From a virus: 58,995 nt of DNA. The notes beneath the pieces are model-generated. The model worked only from the letters and a program-made list of their open reading frames with translations. It did not search any database and had not been told where the DNA came from. Below, in pieces: positions 26,788 through 30,741 of the stretch. Position 1 is the stretch's first letter; every line of letters begins with the position of its first letter. The stretch covers positions 1-58,995 of IMG/VR virus record IMGVR_UViG_3300049222_000252. One strand, given 5' to 3'. The position numbers and the translations under genes were made by a program.

Positions 26788-27113
26788 AAGTTTTTTAATT
26801 TATTTTCTATATGTTTTATTTTTCCGTTAATTATAGCAGCTTTTTCATACTGCTCTTTCTCTTCGTAAGATGACAATAGGGTCATAAGTCTAGCTAGTTC
26901 TGACAAAAGTACTTCTTCATCTGAAGCATTTTGTTGCATACCAAAGTAAGGTTGTAGACTTACATCAACATCAGCACCTGACTGTTTTACCTGCTCGATA
27001 AACTGCTCATCAAGTTCTTTCTGTCTTTCCATTATTAGTTTGAATACTTTTTCTGCTAATATATCAGCAAAGTCATTCATTTCTTCTTGTGTCATACTAT
27101 TGTTCTTTATCAT
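26784..27113 (-). CDS. Coiled-coil protein of unknown function
   Basis: A 109-residue protein starting MIKNNSMTQEEMNDFADILA at 27113. It is acidic and helical throughout, and its C-terminal EEKEQYEKAAIINGKIKHIE resembles the short UVR-type helical hairpin seen in UvrB and UvrC. It overlaps both neighbours. The function is unknown. Confidence 0.6.
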   Translation of the reverse strand: MIKNNSMTQEEMNDFADILAEKVFKLIMERQKELDEQFIEQVKQSGADVDVSLQPYFGMQQNASDEEVLLSELARLMTLLSSYEEKEQYEKAAIINGKIKHIENKLKNL

Positions 27114-27552
27114 ATTTTTTAAGCGCAGCACCTGGTTTACCTACAAAGATAACTTTTTCTTCACGCGTATCGTATATAGTCATATAAGTCTCGTGACCTT
27201 CTTTAGGTAGTAAAGTGTATATGTAATCAACCCAACCTTCATCGTTATCGATTGGGTGTAAATACAAACCGCCAGGGCGATCTTTAAAGTGTTTTATAAA
27301 CTGAGCCGCGAAACAACCAGGCCCATTTGCATATCTATTAAGCTCTGGATCTCCGATGTATTTTTGAAAAGCTAAACCGTTTCCTATGCTAATACCTTCT
27401 AGCCATTTAGCATATTCTACTGCCATATACGAAGGATAACCATCATATTGCTGATAAATATTCACAAGCGCAAGCTCTGCTCTTTTATGTGCTACATCAT
27501 ACGCCAAACCTTCTTGACGCGGTATAATTCGCGTTAGTGATCTTGTTCCCAT
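27097..27552 (-). CDS. Conserved phage protein (MGTRSLTRII type)
   Basis: A 151-residue protein with start MGTRSLTRIIPRQEG at 27552, a start conserved in a large phage protein family (MGTRSLT..., then YQQYDGYPSYMAVEYAKWLE). The upstream in-frame ATGs lie within another small gene and are less likely. Conserved aromatic and Gly positions suggest an enzyme or ligand-binding fold, but no function is established. It contains VDYIYTLLPKEG and TYMTIYDTREEKVIFVG strands. Confidence 0.7.
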   Translation of the reverse strand: MGTRSLTRIIPRQEGLAYDVAHKRAELALVNIYQQYDGYPSYMAVEYAKWLEGISIGNGLAFQKYIGDPELNRYANGPGCFAAQFIKHFKDRPGGLYLHPIDNDEGWVDYIYTLLPKEGHETYMTIYDTREEKVIFVGKPGAALKKYDKEQ

Positions 27553-28720: not shown

Positions 28721-28810
28721 AGGCGTGGCAGGAATCGAACCTGCCTAACATAGTGTAGGTTGCTCTTATTTGCATTTATCCTCAAACACACTACTGACCA
28801 TTTCACGCCT
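28721..28810 (-). ncRNA. tRNA-like element 1 (T arm and acceptor, no canonical D stem or anticodon arm)
   Basis: On the minus strand, AGGCGTG pairs with CACGCCT to make a 7-bp acceptor stem. GCAGG-TTCGATT-CCTGC is a perfect T arm. Between acceptor and the next helix lies AAATGGTCAG, a D-loop-like stretch with GG but no D stem. TAGTGT pairs with ACACTA (28751-28756 with 28788-28793) around a 31-nt loop in place of a 7-nt anticodon loop. No CCA is encoded. The plan resembles the tRNA-like domain of tmRNA without the message part. It fills the gap between two small genes. Confidence 0.7.
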
Positions 28811-29841: not shown

Positions 29842-30046
29842 AGTCTAATTCTATTAGTTTAAATATATAATTCCAAGTTTCTAGCTCACGCTTTGATGCG
29901 TCGAGACATAATTCTAGCTCATGAAGCGTTACAGCGCCTGTATTTTTGCGCTCAATATCATATTCTAACTTTCTAATCTCAATTTGTTTTGCATTGATTT
30001 TAGAAAAAGCTTTATCATGTGCTTTTAATTTAATTACTTCCTTCAT
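29783..30046 (-). CDS. Helical hypothetical protein
   Basis: An 87-residue protein starting MKEVIKLKAHDKAFSKINAK at 30046, a long charged helix (QIEIRKLEYDIERK) followed by a short acidic tail. The longer in-frame start at 30067 lies deeper in the upstream gene. No family is recognised. Confidence 0.5.
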   Translation of the reverse strand: MKEVIKLKAHDKAFSKINAKQIEIRKLEYDIERKNTGAVTLHELELCLDASKRELETWNYIFKLIELDYGKYDYADEILGSRGNYDA

Positions 30047-30284
30047 AGTTGTCAAAGATTTCGTCACCCCAAATGATTGAGATAGCTGATTGGTCTACAT
30101 AGCTCGTGTCAGAGAACATATGAACTCTTCTCATATCATCGATAGTTAGATCACCAATGAAGTATGTACTTTCAAGTTTGGCAATTACTTGCCTAACAGA
30201 TGAGCTGTATTTGCCTTCGTTTTCTTTGAGCTTAGCTCTAACTCTAGGCTTTAGCCTATTGTAAAGTGTAGGTATTTTAGTCAT
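30030..30284 (-). CDS. Small hypothetical protein downstream of tRNA-like element 2
   Basis: An 84-residue protein (MTKIPTLYNRLKPRVRAKLK) with a basic N-terminus and an acidic C-terminus. The segment VRQVIAKLESTYFIGDLTID followed by DMRRVHMFSD is unassigned. Translation starts 18 bases downstream of the tRNA-like element, so RNA processing there could expose this start. Confidence 0.6.
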   Translation of the reverse strand: MTKIPTLYNRLKPRVRAKLKENEGKYSSSVRQVIAKLESTYFIGDLTIDDMRRVHMFSDTSYVDQSAISIIWGDEIFDNYEGSN

Positions 30285-30390: not shown

Positions 30391-30554
30391 AGGCAGCAGT
30401 TGCGGACTGGTAGTTAACTAGTATTGTCATTTATCCGCTCTTTCTGTTTTATTGAAGGTATGACTGAGACGCTCTAAGGAATACTCGTTCGATGAGTCTT
30501 ACACTCCGTTTCGTCTTAACCCTTTCAACTAACGTGACCAGTATGCCGCCGCCT
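30391..30554 (-). ncRNA. Folded non-coding RNA directly upstream of tRNA-like element 2
   Basis: The 160 bases between two genes fold on the minus strand into nested helices. An outer helix pairs AGGCGGCGG (30554-30546) with CTGCTGCCT (30399-30391), including two G-U pairs. TTGAA-A-GG pairs with CCTTCAA, AGACG with CGTCT, GGAGT with ATTCC and ACTC with GAGT. A second branch pairs GCGGA with TCCGC. G-U pairs occur mostly in the minus-strand sense, as expected for transcription in that direction. No frame of useful length is present. Function unknown; hand-folded only. Confidence 0.55.
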
Positions 30555-30741
30555 ATTTACGTCGCCAAGACCTGTGTACACTTGCAGACACTTCTTGGCT
30601 GACGATTTGAATTGTATTGCCTGTTTTGTGCTCAATGATAGGTATATAGCTGTAAGTTTTAGCTGTTGAACAATCAACACAAGTGTTATATCCTAGTTTT
30701 TGTCGCACTGGGTGCACATCATTTCCGCATCTACAATACAT
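30553..30741 (-). CDS. Small zinc-ribbon protein
   Basis: A 62-residue protein with MYCRCGNDVHPVRQKLGYNT and CVDCSTAKTYSY: two Cys pairs (CRC and CVDC) that could bind zinc. The C-terminus is basic (HRSWRRK). An early promoter-like motif ends 12 bases before its start, so the transcript may be almost leaderless. It precedes the folded RNA. Confidence 0.6.
   Translation of the reverse strand: MYCRCGNDVHPVRQKLGYNTCVDCSTAKTYSYIPIIEHKTGNTIQIVSQEVSASVHRSWRRK

What the first reader, a model, noticed from the sequence alone, without database searches (positions are those of the whole stretch)
30391..30554. Folded 160-nt RNA directly upstream of tRNA-like element 2
The gene-free stretch can be closed by a 9-bp helix joining its two ends, with a nested multi-part stem (TTGAA/TTCAA, AGACG/CGTCT, GGAGT/ATTCC, ACTC/GAGT) and a second branch (GCGGA/TCCGC). 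The ends touch a gene stop and the tRNA-like element, so the RNA and the element appear to form one unit. I know of no matching named family of this size; ROOL and GOLLD RNAs also sit beside tRNAs in phages but are far larger.
Basis: partly seen in the sequence, partly recalled or inferred. Interest (0 to 1): 0.7.

Follow-up and report, generated by a model that had tools for sequence, protein, structure and literature searches.

The report
Phage pseudoknot RNA capping tRNA-like elements
The gene-free stretch is a real, previously uncatalogued RNA fold (a pseudoknot kept by compensatory mutations in 30 related phage sequences) that sits directly in front of a tRNA or a stripped-down tmRNA 'tRNA-like' element and carries swappable smaller RNA modules inside one of its loops.

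Summary
The RNA is real, on the minus strand (30554-30391). Its folding energy is no better than shuffled sequence, but 30 distinct homologues from marine phages keep three helices by compensatory change (93% of cells paired, 47 doubly changed cells, 0/500 shuffles). P2 and P3 cross, so it is a pseudoknot, which energy folding cannot see. I call it alpha. In 34 of 36 copies it ends 2-5 nt before a tRNA or a tRNA-like element.

The neighbouring 'tRNA-like element 2' is not a tRNA. It matches the tRNA-like domain of tmRNA (E 6e-13), with G3-U70 and no D stem; the whole mRNA-like domain is replaced by a short variable hairpin.

Alpha's hairpin holds interchangeable modules. In the window, modules lambda and gamma lie nested inside alpha; relatives carry other modules there, and the same modules recur in other hosts.

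No Rfam family matches alpha, and none of 395 genomes of a Bacteroidota-related class carries it.

Most likely mechanism (inferred): RNase P cuts at the element's 5' end and alpha caps the new mRNA 3' end, as in MALAT1/mascRNA. A trans-acting decoy and a leader switch or ribozyme remain open.

The parts
30391..30554 (-). alpha RNA: pseudoknotted leader RNA (the finding); its 5' end overlaps the TAG stop of the upstream gene
   Evidence: 36 homologous copies, alignment A1 of 30 distinct cores, covariation
30546..30554 (-). P1, 5' strand of the closing helix (pairs with 30391-30399)
   Evidence: helix 1, 91.5% of cells paired, 4 pairs with double changes (GC/AU, CG/UA)
30391..30399 (-). P1, 3' strand
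30537..30542 (-). P2, 5' strand ACTGGT
   Evidence: 100% paired; central pair UA 14 / AU 13 / UG 3
30406..30411 (-). P2, 3' strand ACCAGT
30435..30439 (-). P3, 5' strand (contains GCGG); crosses P2
   Evidence: 4 of 5 pairs with double changes; divergent copies L131/L245 found without using the 3' strand have TTGGG/CCCAA
30401..30405 (-). P3, 3' strand (contains CCGC)
30450..30529 (-). variable insert hairpin between conserved strands CACGTTA and AAACAGAAA; 13 to 98 nt in relatives
   Evidence: 25 distinct inserts, closing-stem test above all 1000 shuffles; 17 different spacings
30452..30528 (-). nested module lambda (TTGAA ... TTCAA; AGACG/CGTCT inside)
   Evidence: recurs in the alpha of L007, L074, L080, L102
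30472..30507 (-). nested module gamma (GGAGTGTAAGACTC ... GAGTATTCCTTAGAG)
   Evidence: the same module sits in a different host module (beta) in L012 and L091
30302..30387 (-). tRNA-like element 2 (TLE2): tmRNA tRNA-like domain without mRNA-like domain; acceptor GGGCGTG/CACGTCC with G3-U70, D loop without stem, variable helix GAAGC/GCTTC (30368-30364 with 30334-30330), T arm 30325-30309, discriminator A 30301
   Evidence: Rfam RF00023 35.5 bits, E 5.9e-13, best of its clan; over 90 homologues
28721..28810 (-). tRNA-like element 1 (TLE1), same architecture, acceptor AGGCGTG/CACGCCT (G3-C70); no alpha in front
30553..30741 (-). upstream gene, 62-aa Cys-rich (Zn-ribbon-like) protein conserved in relatives; no Pfam or PHROG match
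30030..30284 (-). downstream gene (84 aa), starts 17 nt after the TLE2 discriminator base

Best explanation
Shown by sequence: alpha is a phage-specific structured RNA. It has a closing helix (P1), an H-type pseudoknot (P2 crossing P3) with nearly invariant unpaired bases, and one hairpin that accepts interchangeable nested modules. It lies on the coding strand of an operon and ends 2-5 nt before the 5' end of a tRNA or of a tmRNA-type tRNA-like domain that has lost its mRNA-like domain. Inferred: host RNase P cleaves at the 5' end of the tRNA or tRNA-like element, and tRNA 3' processing plus CCA addition completes that element. The upstream phage mRNA is left ending in alpha, whose compact pseudoknot blocks 3'-5' exonucleases and so stabilises and delimits the upstream transcript. 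The element thus acts as a cleavage site and alpha as the 3' cap, the logic of MALAT1-mascRNA. The nested modules are tolerated, and perhaps selected, because they sit in a solvent-exposed hairpin.
For: Covariation with crossing helices: 93.1% of cells paired, 9 pairs and 47 cells doubly changed, 0/500 shuffles for cells and score, all slid registers far lower. Fixed abutment: the next element starts 17-22 nt after P2 (2-5 nt after P1) in 34 of 36 alphas. Its type varies freely: TLE-A, TLE-F (GGGAGTG), tRNA-Met. Collected without reference to alpha, 12 further TLE-F elements all have a helix-closed RNA unit directly upstream: compact alpha in 6, another module (theta) in 5, another unit in 1. 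TLEs are tRNA-like in ways that matter for processing. Their best Rfam family is tmRNA. G3-U70 is kept in 107 of 123 against 3 of 43 ordinary tRNAs in the same loci, while pair 4-69 takes all four Watson-Crick states. They share the N73-CTA trailer with tRNAs of the same phages (107 of 123 against 28 of 43). MALAT1 precedent: RNase P cleavage at mascRNA creates an RNA 3' end protected by a structured element (PMC12609000).
Against: No transcript data exist: cleavage, 3' ends and stability are untested. Some TLEs have no upstream unit (TLE1 in the window; L005, L015) and some relatives lack the whole cassette (L039, L053, L054), so it is accessory. The strongly conserved unpaired bases suggest specific recognition or catalysis, more than a mere roadblock needs. 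Two alphas have the tRNA 110 and 348 nt downstream.
Confidence: 0.38

Rival explanations
1. Trans-acting RNA. Alpha and/or the TLE is a stable free ncRNA acting as a decoy, for example soaking up host tmRNA partners (AlaRS, SmpB, EF-Tu) or a tRNA-targeting or other defence factor. Module turnover then reflects an arms race.
For: The TLE keeps tmRNA/Ala identity features without an mRNA-like domain, as a competitor would. Module content is hypervariable between close relatives. The cassette is accessory. A related cultured phage encodes a whole tmRNA.
Against: Alpha precedes ordinary tRNAs as readily as TLEs and its core is strongly conserved rather than fast-evolving. No target has been identified.
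Confidence: 0.25
2. Alpha is a cis leader that controls or performs maturation of the adjacent tRNA/TLE: a self-cleaving ribozyme, or a ligand- or protein-binding switch.
For: Long, nearly invariant unpaired stretches (CACGTTA, AAACAGAAA, GATAAATGACAATACTAG) around a pseudoknot, as in ribozymes and aptamers; fixed position before the tRNA/TLE.
Against: No similarity to any Rfam ribozyme or riboswitch. Five of 12 newly collected TLE-F elements use the unrelated theta unit in the same place. Part of the apparent conservation reflects the search pattern.
Confidence: 0.2
3. Selfish hairpin mosaic. The modules are tiny mobile hairpin-forming elements that insert into loops of one another and of tRNA-like RNAs, with no function for the phage.
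For: The same modules occur in different hosts: H in A, T, P and free; B in A and in TLE-B; G in A and B; E in P, T and free. Bipartite modules occur with up to 17 different spacings. Mobile hairpin elements that invade structured genes are known in mitochondria (PMC2800124).
Against: The alpha core is under purifying selection with compensatory changes and has a fixed position relative to tRNAs/TLEs, which a random inserter would not show. Homologous recombination could equally shuffle modules.
Confidence: 0.14
4. Chance fold in an AT-rich spacer.
For: Energy z-scores near 0 on both strands.
Against: Compensatory changes in 30 distinct homologues, including crossing helices; fixed spacing.
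Confidence: 0.01

Closest known systems
tmRNA (Rfam RF00023), tRNA-like domain
   Same: TLE2: acceptor with G3-U70 and A73, D loop without stem, T arm; CM match E 5.9e-13 over the two ends of the model.
   Different: The mRNA-like domain and the pseudoknots of tmRNA are absent; a variable hairpin replaces them. Alpha lies outside, upstream of the 5' acceptor strand.
MALAT1-mascRNA (vertebrate lncRNA 3' end)
   Same: Structured RNA directly upstream of a tRNA-like element; proposed RNase P cut and 3' cap (PMC12609000).
   Different: No U-rich/A-rich triple helix; the phage uses a pseudoknot. Cleavage not shown here.
GOLLD and ROOL RNAs
   Same: Structured phage RNAs of unknown function encoded near tRNAs (PMC12286853).
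   Different: Several-fold larger; no Rfam match; alpha has a fixed 2-5 nt abutment and carries exchangeable modules.
Mitochondrial repetitive/double hairpin elements
   Same: Short hairpin-forming units recurring in different structural contexts (PMC2800124).
   Different: The phage modules have conserved two-strand cores, are nested up to three deep, and alpha is a covarying pseudoknot.
Full phage tmRNA of Callevirus (Cellulophaga phage phi40:1)
   Same: Related phage lineage; complete tmRNA with G3-U70; a tmRNA in Calle phages was reported before (PMC8776804).
   Different: Has an mRNA-like domain and tag.

Membership tests
tmRNA (TLE2) | tRNA-like domain with G3-U70 acceptor, stemless D loop, T arm | tested here: met
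tmRNA (TLE2) | mRNA-like domain with resume codon and tag, flanked by pseudoknots | tested here: not met
   About 326 model positions deleted; only 43 nt between the two ends; ARAGORN finds no tmRNA; score below the gathering cut-off (35.5 against 47)
tmRNA (TLE2) | alanylation, SmpB binding, trans-translation | not testable with these tools
   needs biochemistry
tRNA (TLE2) | cloverleaf with D stem and 7-nt anticodon loop | tested here: not met
   ARAGORN 0 genes; helix GAAGC/GCTTC closes a 29-nt loop; the tmRNA model outscores tRNA
GOLLD / ROOL (alpha) | match to the Rfam covariance model | tested here: not met
   no match at gathering or E<=10
Known self-cleaving ribozymes and riboswitches (alpha) | match to a Rfam model | tested here: not met
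   only a chance-level snoRNA hit (E 6.6). Rfam models do not score pseudoknots, so distant kin could be missed
Known self-cleaving ribozymes (alpha) | self-cleavage | not testable with these tools
   needs an in vitro assay
MALAT1-type 3' end | tRNA-like element directly downstream of a structured RNA | tested here: met
   34 of 36 copies within 2-5 nt
MALAT1-type 3' end | U-A-U triple helix from U-rich loop and A-rich tract | tested here: not met
   no U-rich/A-rich tract pair in the conserved core (by inspection)
MALAT1-type 3' end | RNase P cleavage generating the 3' end | not testable with these tools
   no transcript data

The most novel reading that the evidence does not exclude
Marine Bacteroidota phages run a combinatorial RNA system. 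Scaffolds (pseudoknot leaders such as alpha and theta, and tmRNA-derived tRNA-like domains stripped of their message) carry interchangeable RNA modules nested inside one another and diversified between close relatives, forming a repertoire of stable RNAs that act on host translation or defence.
Probability: 0.3. Interest if true: 0.92.

Novelty: categorically new. Interest (0 to 1): 0.75.

Why it matters
Alpha appears to be a new RNA family with covariation support for a pseudoknot, and it anchors an undescribed arrangement: nested, swappable RNA modules built around tmRNA-type tRNA-like domains that have lost their message. It opens testable questions: how phages define mRNA 3' ends in tRNA-bearing operons, whether viruses use message-less tmRNAs to interfere with ribosome rescue, and how RNA modules are exchanged and nested. 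Energy-based screens and tRNA/tmRNA finders miss all of it.

Tried and rejected
Energy folding as a test: uninformative, because a pseudoknot and an unrelated insert defeat it. tRNA with intron (ARAGORN with introns allowed): only low-threshold noise. Rfam at the gathering threshold: nothing in the window. Nearest cultured phages by DNA: only short T-arm matches. A fourth alpha helix (TCA/TGA) was considered and dropped because the compact alphas do not keep it. Cellular origin: alpha and TLE patterns are absent from 395 genomes of the class of the MAG behind L225. In the wider genome scan most hits are ordinary tRNAs or tmRNAs; those with the phage TLE form lie in MAG contigs that may be phage sequence (L197, L211, L212, L225). 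Flavobacterium elemo phages: the region upstream of their tRNA-Met is nearly invariant among records, so covariation could not be tested. Full-text searches found no description, but only open-licence papers are covered.

Full report
Observation. Window 30391-30554 lies between a 62-aa gene ending in TAG (30555-30553) and a tRNA-like element; the genes here run on the minus strand, so the RNA is read on the minus strand. Energy folding is uninformative: z 0.33 (+) and 0.01 (-), with about half of the shuffles as good or better. Rfam 15 gives nothing at gathering scores and only a chance-level hit to this RNA at E<=10. ARAGORN finds no tRNA or tmRNA in the window.

Relatives. Pattern and protein scans of IMG/VR returned many homologous loci on phage contigs, typically 20-70 kb. 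The window is a virus record. Its terminase is 61% identical to an unclassified podovirus from Manatee Spring, 44% to Flavobacterium Elemovirus, and less to Cellulophaga and Tenacibaculum phages, so the host is probably a member of the Flavobacteriia or a relative (inference).

The alpha core. 36 copies were extracted. With the insert removed, 30 distinct cores align nearly without gaps apart from a compact form that lacks the insert hairpin (A1). Three helices were tested: P1 (columns 3-11 with 78-86), P2 (15-20 with 66-71) and P3 (38-42 with 72-76). P2 and P3 cross: this is an H-type pseudoknot with the 3' strands of P2 and P3 contiguous. 93.1% of cells pair (shuffles 86.3 +/- 0.6). There are 47 doubly changed cells (shuffles 14.3 +/- 2.5) and a covariation score of 0.264 (0.142 +/- 0.009); 0/500 shuffles reach these values, and slid registers fall to 29-52% paired. 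One measure goes the other way: the number of further pair types (16) is below the shuffled mean (18.7), as expected when changes are coordinated. Examples: the central P2 pair is UA in 14, AU in 13, UG in 3; P3 pair 40/74 is UA in 17 and CG in 10. Caveats: the copies are related, so cells are not independent events; the search pattern fixed part of the 3' strand, including three P2 bases. A later scan with the 5' strand only removed that bias and found divergent copies L131 and L245, whose P3 is TTGGG/CCCAA, again compensatory.

The insert. Between CACGTTA and AAACAGAAA lies a hairpin of 13-98 nt. Its ends pair better than re-dealt ends (15 groups: mean run 4.6 against 2.4, maximum of 1000 shuffles 3.7). 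In the window it holds module lambda, and inside that module gamma. Gamma sits instead inside module beta in L012/L091; beta itself occurs in alpha and in another tRNA-like family; module eta occurs in alpha, theta, P, TLEs and free-standing. K-mer pair statistics found the two-strand modules without prior choice: alpha, 32 segments with 17 spacings; theta, 29 with 16; eta, 22 with 6.

The neighbour. TLE2 (30387-30302) is best described as a tmRNA tRNA-like domain: RF00023, E 5.9e-13, best of the tRNA/tmRNA clan, with about 326 model positions deleted. Eight further elements give the same answer at E<=3e-10, and a full tmRNA in L110 served as positive control. RF00023 also rings in archaeal control genomes, so I rely on the clan competition and on the anatomy. 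G3-U70 is kept in 107 of 123 elements against 3 of 43 ordinary tRNAs in the same loci. Family A was collected with U70 in the pattern, but families found otherwise also keep it, while pair 4-69 is CG, AU, GC and UA in different families. Exceptions: family B (C3-G70), family D and window TLE1 (G3-C70). The trailing N73-CTA is shared with tRNAs of the same phages.

Unit. In 34 of 36 alphas a tRNA or TLE starts 17-22 nt after P2, i.e. 2-5 nt after P1 (the four 'None' rows are tRNA-Met genes at the same offset, read directly from the sequence). Among 12 TLE-F elements collected without reference to alpha, all have a helix-closed RNA unit directly upstream: compact alpha in 6, theta in 5, another in 1.

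Distribution. No alpha or TLE pattern in 395 genomes of the class of the MAG behind L225. The cassette is accessory: several relatives with the same upstream gene lack it. A related cultured phage, Cellulophaga phi40:1, has a full tmRNA.

Mechanism (inferred). The fixed abutment, indifference to which tRNA-like element follows, shared tRNA trailers and a compact pseudoknot fit an RNase P cut site plus 3' cap, the logic of MALAT1-mascRNA (PMC12609000). Conserved unpaired bases leave room for a ribozyme or switch; module turnover and message-less tmRNA domains leave room for trans-acting decoys. None of these steps has been observed.

Novelty. Full-text searches found no description, within an open-licence library. 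Alpha has no known family; the TLE is a new variant of the tmRNA tRNA-like domain; the nested-module architecture has no counterpart that I know of. The rating 'categorically new' applies to alpha and the architecture, not to the TLE.

Noticed in passing
window 28721-28810 (-): Second tRNA-like element (TLE1), same stemless D loop and variable helix but G3-C70 and no alpha upstream.
   Followed up: partly
L236 (Cellulophaga phage phi40:1, record 26803-27164, -): Complete tmRNA not annotated as such in the record (an ORF, gp041, is called over it); its predicted 22-aa tag ends in ..EVAVGV, not in the usual LAA-type degradation signal.
   Followed up: partly
L005, L011, L012, L023, L027, L030, L091: Another tRNA-like family (AACTAGG ... 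CTAGTT, with conserved CTACYGACGRGTA before the T arm), also carrying nested modules, with C3-G70 instead of G3-U70.
   Followed up: partly
L003 3639, L007 2255, L014 7597 (+): A further tRNA-like family GGGTAACTACATGGACAGTAG ... CTTATCC whose long insert contains a conserved internal core.
   Followed up: no
L056, L057, L058, L059: GTGAGTGTCTGGAT ... CACTCAC elements close downstream of the GP88 gene in more distant phages, with a conserved ACTGCTTTNATTTGGTTNNGCAG-like stretch before the T arm.
   Followed up: no
L254, L255, L258, L259, L260: Module theta (CTAGACGAGTAGCTTAATTAGG ... CATAAGTGAATTGCTAGC) takes the place of alpha directly upstream of the tRNA-like element; probably a second leader RNA family.
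   Followed up: partly
L231 9582-9675 (-): About 90-nt gene-poor stretch with hairpins directly upstream of tRNA-Met in the cultured Flavobacterium elemo phages; a possible tractable counterpart, but nearly invariant among records.
   Followed up: partly
L211, L212, L225, L197: MAG contigs binned as Aliivibrio, Bacteroidetes and Ilumatobacteraceae carry the phage tRNA-like elements and are probably mis-binned phage sequence.
   Followed up: no
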